Origin: an uncultured Clostridia bacterium
GTDB taxonomy: Bacteria; Bacillota; Clostridia; Christensenellales; Aristaeellaceae
Direction of reading: 5' to 3'
Assembly: GCA_947596085.1 (NCBI GenBank)
Contig: CANQEW010000007.1
Location: 1-64,000, forward strand
Length of the DNA: 64,000 bases
This document shows positions 2,123-9,710 of the stretch, in pieces (within the stretch, counting starts at the first letter, position 1; the number at the start of each line of letters is the position of its first letter). Under the pieces are notes generated by a model. It was not told the origin of the DNA and searched no databases. It saw only the letters and a list, made by a program, of their open reading frames with translations. The position numbers were made by a program, and so were the translations under genes.

Positions 2123-4303
2123 TTACTGTTGTAGCAGCGTTTTTTTCGAGGGGAAAAGCACATCCTTTAACCCGTTAATGTCTAGGCAATTATATACATA
2201 TGCTTTTCTGCGCAATTCCTCCGGAACTTGAGAATCGTAGCGATCTACCGGAGTTGATGGCGCAATAGGCACAATATCCTCCGGAGCGATGCTGTTCAAT
2301 GCGCAGACCAGATGCTCCCAGAATTCAGCCGCGGGCAGCTCTGTGTAAAGGAAGATTCCCATCCGCATACCAACAAAGCGCGCAAATTGGATTCTGAGTT
2401 TTTCAGCTAGAGCTTTGTTTAATAGGAATAGAAGCGTGTGCATTTTTCTGCTGCCGAGCCATGGATGAAGCAGCAGCTGTTGATCGCCCAGGATGCTATA
2501 CGGCGCCTCCAGATCCATGTTTGCCGCACGCTTTCGCGCTTCGACCAGAATATCCTTTGTGCCGGGCGTCAGATAGAGATATTCCTTCTCCTCCAGCAGT
2601 ACCTGACGCATTCGCTGGACAATTCGATCGTCAATATCTATGCCTCCGCTATTCCAAAGGACCTTCTTCGGCCCCTTCGACGGCACGACATAGATGACCT
2701 TTCGCTCGGTGTCGATCTCCGTCACGAGCCAGCGCTTGCCGGCCAGGAGGATGGTCTTCTGTACATCGGGCACGCTGTCGACTTCCCCGATTTCCCGCTG
2801 GTGATACATCACGCGAAATCCGGAATTGTCAGCAAATACAGAAAGGAATCGGTAATTGCCAGCAATTCGCTCCCCCAGCAGGCCGGGAATTAGCGTGCCG
2901 GTTTCTGTCTTTTCAATGACGTCCGTCGCGAGCAAGTGCCGGAGCAGCGCCAGGTAATCCTGCTGCACCACGCTGGCGAAGGCAGGCATGGCATAGATGC
3001 GTCGCGCGAGTTCCTTCGGAGAAAGCTCTGCTTGCATCAAAAGGGAGAGCGTCTGATGGAAGAGCACGCTGTAAGGGCAGGGTTTGTCAGCAAATGATTC
3101 CACCCAATGCTCTTCAATGTATAGCTGCACGATGGCGATGTTTTGCAGAAGCTCCCACGGCAAATCCTCAAAGTCCGACTCGCCTTCCGGTTTGCTCGTC
3201 GTGATAAAGCGCATAACCGCCCTTGTGCCGCGCCGACCTGTACGGCCCAGGCGCTGCACAAAGCTCGAGCAGGTGGAGGGAGCCCCCAATTGGACAACCC
3301 GATCGAGGCCACCCAAATCGATGCCCAGCTCCAGCGTCCGCGTAGCGACCGCGACAGCGGGCTTGTCCGTTTCTCGCAACTTATTTTCCGCCTCTTCGCG
3401 CAGCATCGCCGATATACTCCCGTGATGCGCATAGAAGCAATCCGGCTCTCCGCGCCGCTCCGCGCGCTCGCGCAGCGCACAGACCGCCTCCTCCGTCTCC
3501 CCGCGGCTGTTAGTAAAGATGAGACACTTCCTTCCCCATACCTGATGATAGAGATCGTCGAAGAGCTGTTGCTTTATCAGGCCGGCGGAATCTTCGTCAT
3601 TCACAGGGAGGATATAATGCTCCATCTTCAAATCGAGCTTGCGTGCACCTTCACCACTCTCCACAAGCGAACAATCTAGCTTTGTGCCGGCGGATAGCCA
3701 GCGGCGCGCGGCGGTGTAATCATGGATCGTAGCGGACAGACCCACGCGACGTACGCTCCGGTCCAGCATGCGATCGATACGCGTCAGTTGGCACTGCAGT
3801 TGAAGGCCGCGATCTGTGCCCATGAAGGCGTGCAGTTCGTCAATGACCACGAATTGTAGTTCGGCAAACATGCGCACAACGTCGCCGGAGCGGTTCATTA
3901 ACAGCCCCTCCAGCGCCTCCGGCGTGATTTGCAATACGCCCTTGGGGCGCACCGCCGCGCGTTTCTTCTCCGATTGAGAGCGGTCGCCGTGCCAGGCGTA
4001 GATGGGAAAGTCTGCCTCCTCCAGCAGGTCCGTAATGCGCTCGAACTGATCGTTGATCAGCGCCTTCAGCGGGCCGATGTAGAGTATGCCGAAGGAATTC
4101 ACGGGCGATTGCGTCAGCTTCGTGAGCATGGGAAAGAAAGCCGCCTCCGTCTTACCGGACGCCGTGCCTGCCGCGATTAGCACGTGATTGGGCGAATCCA
4201 GAATTTCGGAAATTGCCTGAACCTGCACATCCCGCAGCTCATCCCAGTGGTGGTTCCAGATATACTCCTGAATAAATGGAGCAAGCCTGTAAAACGGACT
4301 CAT
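2123..4303 (-). CDS. sngC: Shango-type DEAD/DEAH helicase (SngC-like)
   Basis: This is a 726-aa superfamily 2 helicase related to Lhr and to the BREX helicase BrxHI. Visible motifs are Q-like VQVQAI near residue 26, Walker A AGTASGKT (45-52), DELH (155-158), SAT (190-192), and motif VI QRLGRTGRRG near residue 355, followed by a long C-terminal region. It should translocate on or unwind nucleic acid using ATP. ATG 4303 overlaps the stop of the upstream ATPase gene by four bases (ATGA), so the two are translationally coupled. With its two partners it matches the TerB/ATPase/helicase order of the Shango phage-defence system. By itself it could be any Lhr-like helicase; the assignment rests on the trio. 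Confidence 0.75.
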   Translation of the reverse strand: MSPFYRLAPFIQEYIWNHHWDELRDVQVQAISEILDSPNHVLIAAGTASGKTEAAFFPMLTKLTQSPVNSFGILYIGPLKALINDQFERITDLLEEADFPIYAWHGDRSQSEKKRAAVRPKGVLQITPEALEGLLMNRSGDVVRMFAELQFVVIDELHAFMGTDRGLQLQCQLTRIDRMLDRSVRRVGLSATIHDYTAARRWLSAGTKLDCSLVESGEGARKLDLKMEHYILPVNDEDSAGLIKQQLFDDLYHQVWGRKCLIFTNSRGETEEAVCALRERAERRGEPDCFYAHHGSISAMLREEAENKLRETDKPAVAVATRTLELGIDLGGLDRVVQLGAPSTCSSFVQRLGRTGRRGTRAVMRFITTSKPEGESDFEDLPWELLQNIAIVQLYIEEHWVESFADKPCPYSVLFHQTLSLLMQAELSPKELARRIYAMPAFASVVQQDYLALLRHLLATDVIEKTETGTLIPGLLGERIAGNYRFLSVFADNSGFRVMYHQREIGEVDSVPDVQKTILLAGKRWLVTEIDTERKVIYVVPSKGPKKVLWNSGGIDIDDRIVQRMRQVLLEEKEYLYLTPGTKDILVEARKRAANMDLEAPYSILGDQQLLLHPWLGSRKMHTLLFLLNKALAEKLRIQFARFVGMRMGIFLYTELPAAEFWEHLVCALNSIAPEDIVPIAPSTPVDRYDSQVPEELRRKAYVYNCLDINGLKDVLFPSKKTLLQQ

Positions 4304-5622
4304 AAGTCAAATAACGCAAAGGCATCGTCATCCAGGGCATCGGGATCCTCTTGGGCGCTCTTGAGCTGCACCTGTCCCGTGCCTATGATGCTCTCGTAGG
4401 TAGCGCCGGGGTTCTGATGGAGCAATGTCATCAGCGAAATGAAGTCGCGCGTGACTTCGCGCGGCGTCAACAGCTTCTCCGCTCCGATTCGATTGGCCAC
4501 CATCTGCATGAAGTCGACCATCTGCTCGGTGGTGAGAATGCCGTCGATGCGGTTGTGCGCGCAGAACACATCCCGCAGCCGCTCCAGCAGTAGGTAAATT
4601 TCCTCATTGTTCAGCGTCTCCAGGCGGATGACCGGCCCGGAGAAGTCCAACAGGCCGTCACGGGCGAGATTGCTGGTCTGAAGCCGGGAGCGCAACGCCT
4701 CATAGCTGAAGAGTCCCCGGCGTTCGTCCTCGATGGATTGGGGCGTACCGCCCACATAGATGCCCAGATACTGCGTGCGACCCTGCATCACATCGTTGAA
4801 CATCGCCAGCAGCTTCTCGTAGTTGTTCTCCCGAGAGACGCGATTTGGAATCTTGTAGAGATTGACGGATTCATCAATCAGCACCAGCAGGCCCTGGTAG
4901 CCCAGCATCTTCGAAAGGCGCGCCAGCAGCTTGATGACCTCGTACCAGCTGTCGTCGGAGATGATCTGAGACACGCCCAGCTCCCGCGCGTCTGATTTTC
5001 GCTCGTACTCGCCGCGCAACCAGCGTAGGGCGCTTTGCTTGAGATCTGCGTTGTCACCGCGGTAGCCTTCCCAGTATTTTAGCAGCACGCGGGCAAAGTC
5101 GAAGCCGTAGACGTACTCCTGCAGCTCACCCGCGATCTCTAATATCCTGCCTTCGACCTCTTGGGTGAAATTCGGCTGCCCCGTGCCGATCCCCGAGGCC
5201 GCCACCTGGCGCTGCGCGTCCATGATCCAACGCTGAAGCAGGCTCTCCAGCGCGTTCCCCTCCGGTCGCGCCTTCGTGGAAAGATTGGCGATCAATTCAC
5301 GATACAGCTTCAAGCCCTGTCCCCTCGTACCTGTTAAGCGACGCTCCGGACTCAGATCCGCATTGGCCACCAGGTAGTTGCGCTCCAGCGCGTTGTTGCG
5401 GGCCAATTGCAGCAGGAAGCTTTTGCCGCTTCCATACTTGCCGACGATGAAGCGGAACGCCCCGCCTCCGTCCGCGATGTCCGCTAAATCGGAGAGGATC
5501 GCCTGCACCTCCGCCTTGCGGCCCACGGCGATGTACTCGAGCCCAATATTCGGCACGACGCCTGCGCCCATCGATTTCAGTATCGCGGTTGAATATCTCC
5601 GCGCGATCTTCAGGTTTTCCAC
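4300..5622 (-). CDS. sngB: Shango-type ATPase (SngB-like, BrxD-related P-loop protein)
   Basis: This is a 440-aa P-loop ATPase of the DUF2791/BrxD type. Walker A is GKYGSGKS (61-68) and Walker B is LLVLIDES (about 245-252). After Walker B comes the NNYEKL and GIYVGGTPQ segment typical of these ATPases. The start is GTG 5622, four bases after the TerB gene's stop, with AAGGGAG upstream. In BREX-type loci such ATPases are paired with an Lhr-like helicase, exactly as here. Between a TerB-domain protein and a helicase it corresponds to SngB of Shango. It probably senses or remodels a nucleoprotein target and hands it to the helicase; that role is inference. Confidence 0.75.
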   Translation of the reverse strand: MENLKIARRYSTAILKSMGAGVVPNIGLEYIAVGRKAEVQAILSDLADIADGGGAFRFIVGKYGSGKSFLLQLARNNALERNYLVANADLSPERRLTGTRGQGLKLYRELIANLSTKARPEGNALESLLQRWIMDAQRQVAASGIGTGQPNFTQEVEGRILEIAGELQEYVYGFDFARVLLKYWEGYRGDNADLKQSALRWLRGEYERKSDARELGVSQIISDDSWYEVIKLLARLSKMLGYQGLLVLIDESVNLYKIPNRVSRENNYEKLLAMFNDVMQGRTQYLGIYVGGTPQSIEDERRGLFSYEALRSRLQTSNLARDGLLDFSGPVIRLETLNNEEIYLLLERLRDVFCAHNRIDGILTTEQMVDFMQMVANRIGAEKLLTPREVTRDFISLMTLLHQNPGATYESIIGTGQVQLKSAQEDPDALDDDAFALFDL

Positions 5623-5626
5623 TTGA

Positions 5627-8600
5627 TCACTCCCTTATCAGGTGATTTTGAATCTCCGGCAGATATTCCTCAAACAATCCATTTTCATCCGCGATCAGAT
5701 CGCCGATGGTGTCCGAAGCGATTTCGTTCAATCCATCCAGCAGCAGCTCTGGCATCTCTCCACGCACCTTGGCAAATTCCCGGAACGATTCCGGCCCATC
5801 CAGCAGCGCCGCCAGGGAATCCAGGCTGTAGCGCATTCGCACTTGGTCGAAGAATTCCCTCCAATCGTCACTCAGACCATTGGCATCGATGCTCCACAGT
5901 GATTCCGGGCCCTGCTCCGGCATCAGATATTCCAATTCATCGCGATAGTCTTCTGCGACGATCAAATTGTCCGCTTCCTGTTCGATCAGCATGCAGCCTA
6001 GCTGGGCCAGCGCAATCTCATTGATCTCGTCGATCAAAACCTCGGGTAGCGTCTGAAACAGCCGCTCGCACAGTGACTGCGCGCTCGTGTGCCAGCCCCC
6101 ACTGCGCATTATCTCCAGCGCCTCCCGCTGTTCCCCGGAGAGGCGATTCAGTATTGCCTGCACCGGTTCGAGATCCGTAAGCATTCCCTCTGGCGCATCG
6201 ACCGGGCGCTGAATCGCATTGGTCACCGACGCTTCCTCCATTGATACGTCAACATTTCCGATGGAGGCAAGCAGCGCCGCGCGCACTTGGTCCGACTCCG
6301 CGCGCAGCCGTTCGACGCTGCCGAGATCGAGCACGATCTGCGCCGGGGCAGTCTGCTGCGCGCTGGCCTTGGGGTTCGAGAGCTTCGCCTTCAGCTGTGC
6401 ATCCACCCAGGCCCTGACCTGTTCCGGAAGCTCCACGCCCTGCAGTCTGGAGGAGAATTTGCACTGGGCGCGCAGCGCGTTTTCCGTATATCGAATCAAA
6501 TTTCGCAGGAAACCCTGCAGCTTAAGCCCGGCGATGTAATTCCGATATTTGAAGCGATATGAACGTGATGATTCGCACAATGCGCCCACAAAAGCGATTT
6601 TCGTTTCCGTGCGCATCTTTAAGGGAGCATAAGTTTCCAGGATTCCCTTTCCGCTCTTTTCGCGCATGGATCGATCAATTGCTTCCACAACCTCGGGAAG
6701 AAGTCCGTCGACAAGTTTTTGATTGCCGCGTTGGTAAAACTTGCTGCTTGTGATGCGGTACTGGGATAATTTTTCCAACACCCATACCGGGAGCCGGAGC
6801 GTGTCTTTCCTCTCCACCATCTCCGTCAGCAACGCGTTCAATCCGGAGTCGCTCAGCCATGGAATCTCCAACAGGAATTTTCCGGCGGGTTGCTCCAGCC
6901 CATTGATGAGAGTGTAGTCAAAGACCCACTCCCCCAGGTAGCGGTTCAGTTGGGGAAGGCGCTCGCCGTAATTCTTCCAGATTCGCATCAGCATCTCCAG
7001 CCCCTGCTCTGGGCTCGTCGTGCCGATCTGATTCAAGACTTCATAGATGAAGACGAATAGGTAAGAGAGGTCCGTGTCCGGATACTTCCCCCATCGCAGC
7101 TGCGTGCGTAGCCAGAAATACCAATTCTGCTGCTCGGCGGTCATGTCCGCGTACTTCGGCCAGTAGCAGAGGAAGGATACATGAGGCGCTTCCTTTCCTT
7201 CGAAGTCAGTGCGATTGCGAGCCTCCTCGAAAAAATCCCGCACTGGATTGCGGATGGAGATGGTGATGATGTCAGAAGAATCCACATCGGCGCTGCGCGG
7301 CGGAATGGGAATTCCATGTTGGACTGTGCCACCGAGATCGATCTCCGTACCCTGATCTTCTTCAAGCAAATCCGCTCTCGACGGTCTTACCGGCAAGCGC
7401 TCCGATCTGGAGAATTCTATCTCCTCAGAGGACAATTCTGTGCGTGATCGCTCCGTCGATGCGCTCTCCAATTCGGAAAATTCTACCTCTTCCGCGGCAC
7501 GGAACACGGGTGTTGGAGAAAACCGGAACGGCTCGAACAGCGCCTCCGGCGCGCGGCCGTTGCGAATCAGCCGCCTTGTGAGCTCCGCGTCGTGATATCC
7601 CAGTATCATCGAGGCGCGGTTCAGCCACTCCTTATCCCTGGAGTAGCCCTGGAGGAAGAAGCCGATCTTGCACGCTGCACGGATGGACAGCATCGCCTGA
7701 AACAGCTTGACAGAGGTGCCGACCGAGCGGGCATCCGGTTCGATCAGGCAAGCCAGATCCCAGCGCTGATCCAATGTGCGCTCCACATCGGGGGATAATT
7801 TGTCGTAGGGGATTAAGCGGACGCGCTTGTCGTCAAACAGTGGACCGAAGATGGGCGAAGCCTCGGACAGCGCTCTGCAATCATCCCCGCTTCCCGCGAC
7901 GAGCACTATGGCATCCCGATTCTTTTCGCAATAGCGCAAAAGCATGGGCATGCCGTAAGCGACCATCGCCTCGTAACCGCCGATCATGCCGCCGTTAATG
8001 CCCCAGTGCAGCAAAAATGCCAAATGATCGTTGACGCAGCTATGCTTGTCTCCGCTGTCCCGCCAGCTTGCACCATCCATCCGCATTTCGCTGAACAGCG
8101 CGTCGAGTCGCTTTCCACCGCGATGCAACAGCAGCTCCGCGTCCAGGTTGATCGGTCTGAGCGGCTTGCCATCCGGCATCATGCCGCTTTCATCCATTCC
8201 CAAGGTCTGCAAATCCCGTCTGCGCACCCAGCCGGCGGCAATGCGGGCATAGGGCTGCTGCAGCATCTCTCGCAGCTGCTCAACGGTGAACTCTTCATCC
8301 CCGATTCGGGCATAGGGATGCGCACTGGCGCGACCAATGCCTCGCTTCTGCTTGGCGCGAGCAATCAGCAGCCAGCGATAGGGTGGTTCCACCCAGCGAT
8401 GCATCGCTTCAAAGCCGCTTAAATCGCCGGAGATGTACCTCTTCCACTTCGGATAGAATCCATCCAAAAACCAAGCTGCGCGCACATCTTCAAGTACAAC
8501 AAGTCGCTCCGGATCCGGCAAGACGCTGCGTAGATCGCTGGGGAGCAAGCCGGGACGAATCGTATCTCGTACCAGCACATAATCTTTCAGCTGGAAGCTT

Positions 8601-9268
8601 TCGTCGATGTCACTGATCTCAACGCGCCAGGCGGGCTGCAATTCGATGCGTGTCGGGGTAAAGCTCGAAATCGAAAGCGCAATGGCAGGTTCGTCCTCAT
8701 AGGAAAGTTCGCATTGCACAGGAACGCCCGCTGCGGCATAAGTCTCCAAATCCTCCCGCAGAAATGGAATGATAGAGGGGCCCTCAATGCAATCGCACCG
8801 GAAATTTGCTATCTGGCTTTCATTCAATCGATCAAAGCGCCAGTAACTGTCCTCCAAGCGCAGCCAGCCATCCTCCAATTCGACCGTTCCGAGTGGAAGT
8901 AACCTGATCAAAGCGTTTCCTTCTCGCACATACCGCACGAGAAATCCATTTGGGGCCTCATCGCGTATTTCGATGCGCTCCACATCGGAGGCCATGTAAA
9001 AGCTCAGCTTCTTCTGGCGATCATATTGGTCACGCAGGGTTTCCATCACTGTCCGCAGCGCACGCAAATCGGAAATGCGGATCTCATGGATATTCGCTCT
9101 CGCATCCTCCACAAAGCGATCCAACGCCGTCAATTCCGGCCATTTTTCGATGACTTCGGCATAGGTAGAGGCGCGATTGTCATACAAGAACTTCAGGAAG
9201 AAACTTTGTCCTTCCCGAATGAGAGAAACTTGTGTAGATTTAACGAATACGCGCGATATGAAGCCCAT
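5627..9268 (-). CDS. sngA: Shango-type TerB-domain protein (SngA-like) with a degenerate SNF2-like domain
   Basis: This large protein (1213 aa) has three visible parts. Residues about 405-570 follow the order of an SNF2 helicase N-lobe but lack its catalytic residues (see findings). Residues about 590-670 are an acidic, Ser/Arg-rich linker. Residues about 690-870 match TerB-N (CYWPKYADMTAEQQNWYFW, then DTDLSYLFVFIYEVLN). The C-terminus has two TerB-C-like copies, LPEVLIDEINEIAL and MPELLLDGLNEIAS. TerB-family domains belong to tellurium-resistance/stress systems and are the hallmark of SngA in Shango. ATG 9268 is preferred over the track's TTG 9271. It heads the operon and sngB follows after four bases. 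The phage-triggered function is inferred from the family. Confidence 0.75.
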   Translation of the reverse strand: MGFISRVFVKSTQVSLIREGQSFFLKFLYDNRASTYAEVIEKWPELTALDRFVEDARANIHEIRISDLRALRTVMETLRDQYDRQKKLSFYMASDVERIEIRDEAPNGFLVRYVREGNALIRLLPLGTVELEDGWLRLEDSYWRFDRLNESQIANFRCDCIEGPSIIPFLREDLETYAAAGVPVQCELSYEDEPAIALSISSFTPTRIELQPAWRVEISDIDESFQLKDYVLVRDTIRPGLLPSDLRSVLPDPERLVVLEDVRAAWFLDGFYPKWKRYISGDLSGFEAMHRWVEPPYRWLLIARAKQKRGIGRASAHPYARIGDEEFTVEQLREMLQQPYARIAAGWVRRRDLQTLGMDESGMMPDGKPLRPINLDAELLLHRGGKRLDALFSEMRMDGASWRDSGDKHSCVNDHLAFLLHWGINGGMIGGYEAMVAYGMPMLLRYCEKNRDAIVLVAGSGDDCRALSEASPIFGPLFDDKRVRLIPYDKLSPDVERTLDQRWDLACLIEPDARSVGTSVKLFQAMLSIRAACKIGFFLQGYSRDKEWLNRASMILGYHDAELTRRLIRNGRAPEALFEPFRFSPTPVFRAAEEVEFSELESASTERSRTELSSEEIEFSRSERLPVRPSRADLLEEDQGTEIDLGGTVQHGIPIPPRSADVDSSDIITISIRNPVRDFFEEARNRTDFEGKEAPHVSFLCYWPKYADMTAEQQNWYFWLRTQLRWGKYPDTDLSYLFVFIYEVLNQIGTTSPEQGLEMLMRIWKNYGERLPQLNRYLGEWVFDYTLINGLEQPAGKFLLEIPWLSDSGLNALLTEMVERKDTLRLPVWVLEKLSQYRITSSKFYQRGNQKLVDGLLPEVVEAIDRSMREKSGKGILETYAPLKMRTETKIAFVGALCESSRSYRFKYRNYIAGLKLQGFLRNLIRYTENALRAQCKFSSRLQGVELPEQVRAWVDAQLKAKLSNPKASAQQTAPAQIVLDLGSVERLRAESDQVRAALLASIGNVDVSMEEASVTNAIQRPVDAPEGMLTDLEPVQAILNRLSGEQREALEIMRSGGWHTSAQSLCERLFQTLPEVLIDEINEIALAQLGCMLIEQEADNLIVAEDYRDELEYLMPEQGPESLWSIDANGLSDDWREFFDQVRMRYSLDSLAALLDGPESFREFAKVRGEMPELLLDGLNEIASDTIGDLIADENGLFEEYLPEIQNHLIRE

Positions 9269-9303
9269 CAAATCATTCCAAACATATCTTTAGAATAGAC
9301 TGT

Positions 9304-9343
9304 TCTATATATAGATTATACCACAGAATAACAATTATGACAA
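9304..9343 (-). promoter_or_regulatory. Promoter of the sngABC operon with overlapping palindrome
   Basis: On the minus strand TTGTCA (9338-9343), a 17-base spacer and TATAAT (9315-9320, preceded by TGTGG) form a near-consensus sigma-A promoter about 45 bases before the sngA start. The 12-bp perfect palindrome TCTATATATAGA (9304-9315) touches the -10 box and covers the expected transcription start, the usual place for a repressor operator. Confidence 0.6.
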
Positions 9344-9366: not shown

Positions 9367-9710
9367 TATTTGCTGTAGATTTGTCCAAAATGTTTGACAA
9401 ACCTACATCCGCGCACCGTAATGACATCATATATACGATTAATTGTGTTGCAATCTTCCCATTGTGAGGTACGAAAACAGTCCGGTACAACTCCAAAATA
9501 CGGATTAATAACGGCTATTTTTCGCAATGTTTCAATTCTCCTGGGATCTCGCTTCTCTTCAGTTTTGATTGCTGTTCGCGAATTTAGAAGTTTCCCAGCA
9601 TCTAGGGCTTTAATGCGAATCTCCCACCATTTTTAATACGATCCATCGCTTCCAGATAGTGCAGAAATTTTATGATGCTGTTCTACCGTCTCAGCACTTA
9701 AAGTAATCTC
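9367..9710 (-). pseudogene. AT-rich gene remnant of unknown family
   Basis: The minus strand between sngA and the histidine kinase is open from about 9634 down to a TAA at 9367-9369 and reads as plausible protein (KWWEIRIKALDAGKLLNS, later NPYFGVVPDCFRTS). It has no start codon of its own. Upstream the same frame continues to the kinase stop after one in-frame TAA. The base composition is clearly AT-rich, unlike the kinase. It is absent from the ORF track because it lacks a start. I read it as the 3' end of a lost gene, perhaps from the same transferred block as the sng genes. No family is recognised. Confidence 0.3.

What the first reader, a model, noticed from the sequence alone, without database searches (positions are those of the whole stretch)
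2123..9343. Complete Shango-like defence module in an AT-rich accessory block
Three coupled genes in the order TerB protein, P-loop ATPase, Lhr-like helicase match the Shango anti-phage system (SngA-SngB-SngC). The two shorter partners also resemble BREX BrxD and BrxHI, hinting at a common engine reused with different sensors. The block sits next to a variable polysaccharide locus, a gene remnant and a possible IS end, as expected of a defence island.
Basis: partly seen in the sequence, partly recalled or inferred. Interest (0 to 1): 0.75.

Follow-up and report, generated by a model that had tools for sequence, protein, structure and literature searches.

The report
Shango defence operon with pseudo-SNF2 sensor
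This is a complete Shango anti-phage operon, and its first protein carries an extra half that looks like a DNA motor of the SNF2 kind whose ATP-binding site has been lost, a feature that turns out to be widespread and conserved in Shango systems of Bacillota and is not described in the papers we could search.

Summary
The three genes are real and are a Shango operon. PADLOC profiles match SngA (1.3e-83), SngB (570 bits against 154 for BrxD) and SngC (744 bits against 426 for BrxHI), in order on the minus strand, 4 nt apart or overlapping, behind a near-consensus promoter at 9343-9315. The genes are not AT-rich (GC 0.56-0.59, window 0.60); only the flanks are.

The new point is SngA. The profile covers only residues 639-1116 of 1214. 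Residues 1-600 match no Pfam or PADLOC family. With 25 relatives AlphaFold2 gives a confident model (pLDDT 86.6), and its best PDB matches are SNF2 ATPases (ZorD first, 3e-9, then Mot1, Chd1, INO80). The Walker A loop is absent in all 32 members checked and is replaced by an invariant WGxxGGxxG motif; the Walker B aspartate is lost. TerB_N/TerB_C stand where the second RecA lobe would be.

This pseudo-SNF2-TerB SngA occurs in 27 Bacillota loci, nearly all with sngB and sngC. It evolves under purifying selection (dN/dS 0.03-0.2) and looks old in the sngBC tree. I take it as a new variant of a known system. The mechanism, a non-catalytic sensor or docking module that controls the SngB/SngC motor, is inferred.

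The parts
9315..9343 (-). promoter-like site TTGTCA-17-TATAAT with TG before the second hexamer, upstream of sngA
   Evidence: 11 of 12 matches; consensus match only
5627..9268 (-). sngA: 1213-aa pseudo-SNF2-TerB fusion protein (residue numbers below count from the TTG at 9271)
   Evidence: profile PDLC03958 1.3e-83 over aa 639-1116
8402..9268 (-). sngA N-terminal accessory region, aa 2-290; no Pfam match; modelled at pLDDT about 95
7502..8386 (-). sngA pseudo-SNF2 core, aa 296-590: DUF3670-like segment followed by a degenerate RecA1 lobe
   Evidence: AF2 model; Foldseek; hhalign
7973..8026 (-). former Walker A region, aa 416-433, HLAFLLHWGINGGMIGGY; strand runs straight into helix, P-loop missing
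   Evidence: alignments; secondary structure
7733..7762 (-). former Walker B / DEAQ region, aa 504-513, WDLACLIEPD
6656..7237 (-). TerB_N domain of SngA (aa 679-872)
   Evidence: Pfam PF13208 3.2e-27
5930..6370 (-). TerB_C domain of SngA (aa 968-1114)
   Evidence: Pfam PF15615 8.1e-13
5645..5815 (-). second copy of the SngA profile's C-terminal segment (profile 461-525) at the end of SngA
   Evidence: 6.8e-10
4300..5622 (-). sngB: P-loop ATPase, BrxC/BrxD family; Walker A GKYGSGKS and Walker B LVLIDES intact
2123..4303 (-). sngC: Lhr-like SF2 helicase with motifs AGTASGKT, DELH, SAT, QRLGRTGRRG intact

Best explanation
The locus is a complete Shango operon of a variant in which SngA is a fusion of the N-terminal half of a bacterial DUF3670/ZorD-type SNF2 helicase, without a P-loop, with TerB_N and TerB_C, which replace the second RecA lobe. 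Shown by sequence and model: the Shango identity, the SNF2-type fold, the loss of the ATP site, the conservation and the linkage to sngB and sngC. Inferred (about 40% for this form of the mechanism): SngB (ATPase) and SngC (SF2 helicase) form the ATP-driven DNA-processing engine. SngA is the non-catalytic part that recognises an infection signal, such as a phage DNA structure or replication protein, or docks the engine onto it, and passes the state through its TerB modules to SngB/SngC. The invariant glycines and acids around the old nucleotide pocket suggest a reused ligand or partner surface. No nuclease domain was found, so inhibition would come from blocking or unwinding phage DNA replication, or from an unknown host nuclease. 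The confidence given is for identity and architecture.
For: Shango profiles for all three genes. SngB and SngC catalytic motifs intact. AF2 model of aa 1-610 with 26 sequences: pLDDT 86.6, pTM 0.70; top Foldseek PDB hits are SNF2 ATPases: ZorD 3.0e-9, then Mot1, Chd1, INO80, SWR1, Sulfolobus SNF2. hhalign of the core with 30 DUF3670-SNF2 helicases: score 40.7, E 2.7e-4, 230-335 colinear columns, against a maximum of 25.3 in 40 column shuffles and 18.2 reversed. DUF3670 is the only Pfam family weakly hit by more than one member (2 of 26, best E 0.031). GK[ST] absent at the site in 32 of 32. Purifying selection on the core, dN/dS 0.03-0.20 in six pairs. Of 27 pseudo-SNF2-TerB loci, 26 show sngB and 25 sngC. 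Precedent: DndH carries an inactive SNF2 lobe proposed to bind DNA (PMC10853773).
Against: The mechanism was not tested. The HMM comparison depends on the alignment used: with full-length alignments it fell to 26.3 (E 0.057) or 35.4 (E 0.0034). TM-scores to SNF2 proteins are low (0.11-0.23 by query length), because only one lobe is shared and domain placement differs. Only one column of the core is at least 80% K/R, so a conserved DNA-binding surface is not evident. Many Bacillota SngA proteins lack the module, so it is not needed for every Shango.
Confidence: 0.8

Rival explanations
1. The pseudo-SNF2 domain is a DNA clamp: it binds double-stranded or replicating phage DNA through the SNF2 RecA1 DNA face without moving along it, as proposed for the inactive SNF2 lobe of DndH.
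For: SNF2 fold; DndH precedent (PMC10853773).
Against: Almost no conserved basic columns in the core. The strongest conservation is at the former ATP pocket, not the DNA face.
Confidence: 0.3
2. The pseudo-SNF2 domain is only a structural scaffold that holds SngB or SngC, like other pseudo-enzymes that kept their old partner surface. It senses nothing itself.
For: Tight operon linkage with sngB and sngC; the core is more constrained than the TerB part in the Paenibacillus-like pairs L186/L187 and L182/L184.
Against: Close relatives without the module (L067) keep SngB at about 54% identity, so the engine can work without this scaffold.
Confidence: 0.3
3. Some Shango operons of this kind are host maintenance genes rather than, or besides, phage defence.
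For: In one family the pseudo-SNF2 SngA is in 4 of 4 genomes, and in loci L081 and L082 the operon sits at the same place, between a diaminopimelate-dehydrogenase-like gene and ROK kinase, NagA-like and CutC-like genes, with the right side also seen in L080 (names by sequence reading).
Against: Elsewhere it is patchy (20 of 201, 4 of 46, 1 of 396 genomes), absent from both other genomes of the same genus searched, found on a plasmid, and next to Hachiman, Gabija and Mokosh-like genes.
Confidence: 0.12
4. The trio is a BREX fragment (BrxD-BrxHI) beside an unrelated TerB gene.
For: SngB and SngC also hit BrxD and BrxHI profiles.
Against: Scores are 570 against 154 bits and 744 against 426 bits; NCBIfam BrxD cut-off 350 not reached (158); no other BREX gene noticed beside the trio (only the nearest genes were scanned); the same trio recurs as an operon.
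Confidence: 0.02
5. The N-terminal half is a decaying helicase with no function.
For: ATP site lost.
Against: dN/dS 0.03-0.20; seven columns invariant across 26 diverse members; present across a wide span of the Bacillota Shango tree.
Confidence: 0.03

Closest known systems
Shango (SngA-SngB-SngC), tested in P. aeruginosa PA14 and E. coli (PMC10250203)
   Same: Same three genes in the same order; SngB and SngC match along their full length
   Different: SngA is 1213 aa against a 528-position profile; it has an additional 600-residue pseudo-SNF2 half and no detectable TerB core domain
ZorD of Zorya (PDB 8qy7) and DUF3670-type bacterial SNF2 helicases
   Same: N-terminal region, DUF3670-like segment and RecA1 fold in the same order
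   Different: No Walker A, Walker B altered, no second RecA lobe; fused to TerB_N/TerB_C; not a working helicase by sequence
DndH inactive SWI2/SNF2 lobe (PMC10853773)
   Same: An inactive SNF2-derived lobe inside a defence protein
   Different: DndH carries a second (C-terminal) lobe; here it is the first, normally catalytic lobe that has lost its ATP site
BREX BrxD and BrxHI
   Same: Homologues of SngB and SngC
   Different: Much weaker profile scores and no other BREX genes noticed nearby

Membership tests
Shango | SngA-type protein with TerB_N/TerB_C | tested here: met
   PDLC03958 1.3e-83; TerB_N 3.2e-27, TerB_C 8.1e-13
Shango | SngA with a central TerB domain (PF05099), as in Mesorhizobium and Roseovarius SngA | tested here: not met
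   PF05099 not listed for window SngA at E 0.1 but found in L070 and L071 and weakly in L069; other Bacillota SngA proteins lack it too, so it is not treated as obligatory
Shango | SngB P-loop ATPase with intact motifs | tested here: met
   PDLC03959 6.8e-172 over 1-436 of 439; motifs
Shango | SngC SF2 helicase with intact motifs | tested here: met
   PDLC03960 7.4e-224 over 5-716 of 720; motifs
Shango | Gene order A-B-C in one operon | tested here: met
   26 related loci
Shango | Protects against phage | not testable with these tools
   needs phage challenge
BREX (BrxD/BrxHI) | Equivalog score for BrxD | tested here: not met
   157.9 bits against cut-off 350
SNF2 helicase | SNF2-type RecA1 fold | tested here: met
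SNF2 helicase | Walker A GxGK[ST] and DE motif | tested here: not met
   0 of 32 have GK[ST] at the site; the DEAQ-like motif reads EPD in 23 of 32, other forms include EAD and NAD
SNF2 helicase | Second RecA lobe (Helicase_C) | tested here: not met
   no Helicase_C hit in SngA; TerB_N follows

The most novel reading that the evidence does not exclude
SngA is a modular sensor slot in front of a common SngB/SngC engine, and in Bacillota the old slot filler is half of an SNF2 helicase whose emptied ATP pocket was rebuilt, with its own invariant WGxxGGxxG/D/E signature, to bind a different ligand or a phage partner that switches the engine on.
Probability: 0.25. Interest if true: 0.68.

Novelty: new variant of a known kind. 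Interest (0 to 1): 0.5.

Why it matters
A 2026 review lists Shango among the systems of unknown mechanism (PMC12926258). An SNF2-derived but ATP-dead half fused to TerB gives a concrete, testable idea of what SngA does: the non-catalytic arm of a helicase machine. It suggests that SngA is where Shango variants differ while SngB and SngC stay the same. It also shows that the SngA profile describes only the TerB part, and it links TerB proteins to the SNF2 world of ZorD.

Tried and rejected
1) Pfam, PADLOC and PDB sequence searches for the N-terminal half gave nothing usable. 2) First AF2 job with 4 sequences was poor (pLDDT 56.5), though ZorD was already the top fold hit; replaced by the 26-sequence job. 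3) Close-relative scans: viral contigs none; genome contigs only three MAGs, which made the domain look rare until profile searches of the phylum. 4) Plasmid and phage scans: one plasmid (P. peoriae), no phage. 5) hhalign against general SNF2 proteins was weak (E 0.018). 7) A shared two-component neighbour between the window and orphan L036 was considered; 43% identity of response regulators is ordinary for the family. 8) BREX fragment rejected by scores. 9) Promoter and terminator scans as a whole were no better than shuffles; only the 9343 site stands out by its 11 of 12 match. 10) Inverted repeats at the flanks: nothing that looks like a pair of IS ends.

Full report
Observation. The three genes exist as described. 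sngA (5627-9268), sngB (4300-5622) and sngC (2123-4303) lie on the minus strand, 4 nt apart or overlapping by 4 nt, behind a near-consensus promoter-like site whose first base is 9343. PADLOC profiles give SngA 1.3e-83, SngB 6.8e-172 and SngC 7.4e-224 as best hits. BrxD and BrxHI profiles score far lower, and the NCBIfam BrxD cut-off is not met. Motifs for ATP use are intact in SngB and SngC. The genes have GC 0.56-0.59 against 0.60 for the window, so they are not AT-rich; the flanks are.

Surroundings. The window starts at the first base of contig G000:C7 of a 3.1-Mb, 132-contig assembly that is 87% complete. Left of the operon are an acyltransferase and a 77-codon open frame. Right of it are a short low-GC gap, a histidine kinase, a response regulator and a MacA/MacB-like exporter. 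In the gap, 9381-9408 is a 27-28 base sequence found at 10 other places in the same genome, several close to contig ends. In relative G025 it lies at the end of a gene that reads as an integrase-type transposase (by inspection), so a solo IS end is likely. No neighbouring defence system is visible here.

The unusual part. The SngA profile covers only aa 639-1116 of 1214. The first 640 residues match no Pfam family even at E 10. Close relatives were few: three MAG contigs. A profile of them found the domain elsewhere in the phylum, then in 4 of 4 genomes of family f97, 4 of 46 of f45 and 20 of 201 of f64, and on a Paenibacillus peoriae plasmid. In an even draw of the window's own order it was found in 1 of 396 genomes, the window genome itself.

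What it is. The conserved pattern is H-L-x-x-L-x-x-W-G-x-x-G-G-x-x-G, then a strand of the type VLVVG, then WD followed by [IL]-E-P-D. An AF2 model with 26 sequences is confident (pLDDT 86.6, pTM 0.70). Foldseek's best PDB hits are SNF2 ATPases: ZorD at 3e-9 over 660 columns, then Mot1, Chd1, INO80, SWR1 and Sulfolobus SNF2. hhalign with DUF3670-type SNF2 helicases of Bacillota gives a colinear match, E 2.7e-4, score 40.7 against at most 25.3 for 40 column shuffles. It aligns GGMI-----GGYEAM with GGCLADDMGLGKTIQW and CLIEPD with CLDEAQ. This value varies with alignment choice (E 0.0034-0.057; SngB and SngC controls score 19-20). In the model the strand at 427-430 is followed by the helix at 432 with one residue between, so there is no room for a P-loop. 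None of 32 members has GK[ST] there. TerB_N begins at 679, where the second lobe would stand.

Not decay. For six closely or moderately related pairs the core has dN/dS 0.03-0.20, in two Paenibacillus-like pairs (L186/L187 and L182/L184) below the TerB part of the same protein. Of 27 loci with a pseudo-SNF2-TerB SngA, 26 show sngB and 25 sngC within the stretch read; the exceptions are L192 (no sngB frame found) and L191 and L194 (no sngC frame found). One further genome (L035) has the N-terminal half alone, without sngB or sngC on its 9.4-kb contig. A tree of SngB+SngC from 41 loci puts the long type on several deep branches of the Bacillota clade, with short SngA types nested inside (midpoint rooted). 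This fits an old fusion followed by losses or replacements; repeated gain is not excluded.

The SngA N-terminus varies. A haloarchaeal SngA begins with a TM2 membrane segment, alphaproteobacterial ones have a TerB core domain, P. cellulositrophicus has no extra domain, and others have longer or doubled TerB_N parts.

Is it defence? In G1008 the same SngA type sits beside Hachiman (HamA/HamB), Gabija (GajA/GajB) and a Mokosh-like helicase, and in G127 beside DpdF-like, RdrB-like and Schlafen-type genes. Shango itself protects P. aeruginosa against several phages (PMC10250203). For this operon no test exists.

Mechanism. Shown: identity, fold (by confident model), lost ATP site, selection, linkage. 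Inferred: SngB and SngC are the motor, SngA the recognition or docking part. Conservation is highest around the former nucleotide pocket, and only one core column is at least 80% basic, so I rate partner or ligand binding somewhat above plain DNA clamping. DndH offers the precedent for an inactive SNF2 lobe in defence (PMC10853773).

Novelty. I found no paper in the library that describes an SNF2-derived part in SngA, but subscription papers are not held. I class it as a new variant of a known kind.

Noticed in passing
L081, L082, L080 (family f97), L198: The pseudo-SNF2 SngA is present in 4 of 4 genomes of one family; in L081 and L082 the operon lies at one fixed place between a diaminopimelate-dehydrogenase-like gene and ROK kinase, NagA-like and CutC-like genes (right side also in L080), as if inherited vertically rather than carried in an island.
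   Followed up: partly
L035:5644-7509: The pseudo-SNF2 half occurs alone as a 621-aa protein, without TerB, sngB or sngC on the 9.4-kb contig.
   Followed up: partly
L036:9287-10984: A 565-aa TerB_N/TerB_C protein keeps the first ~95 residues of the long SngA but has no SNF2 part and no sngB/sngC nearby; it sits beside a response regulator. The same genome has a separate short-SngA Shango (L039).
   Followed up: partly
L041:5270-10498: Two SngA-like proteins in tandem (1092 and 648 aa) upstream of one sngB-sngC pair.
   Followed up: no
window 9381-9408: 27-28 base sequence repeated at 10 other places in the genome, several near contig ends; in G025 it marks the end of a transposase-like gene, so this is probably a solo IS end upstream of sngA.
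   Followed up: partly
L069:3494-5983: SngA upstream of sngB-sngC on a plasmid of halophilic archaeon DL31 begins with a TM2 membrane domain, another filler of the SngA N-terminal slot.
   Followed up: no
L078:1-18000: Shango, Hachiman, Gabija and a Mokosh-like helicase within 18 kb of one genome.
   Followed up: yes
plasmid collection: 692 plasmid records carry an SngB-like gene, 449 Klebsiella and 144 Salmonella, mostly conjugative; BrxD relatives may be among them.
   Followed up: no
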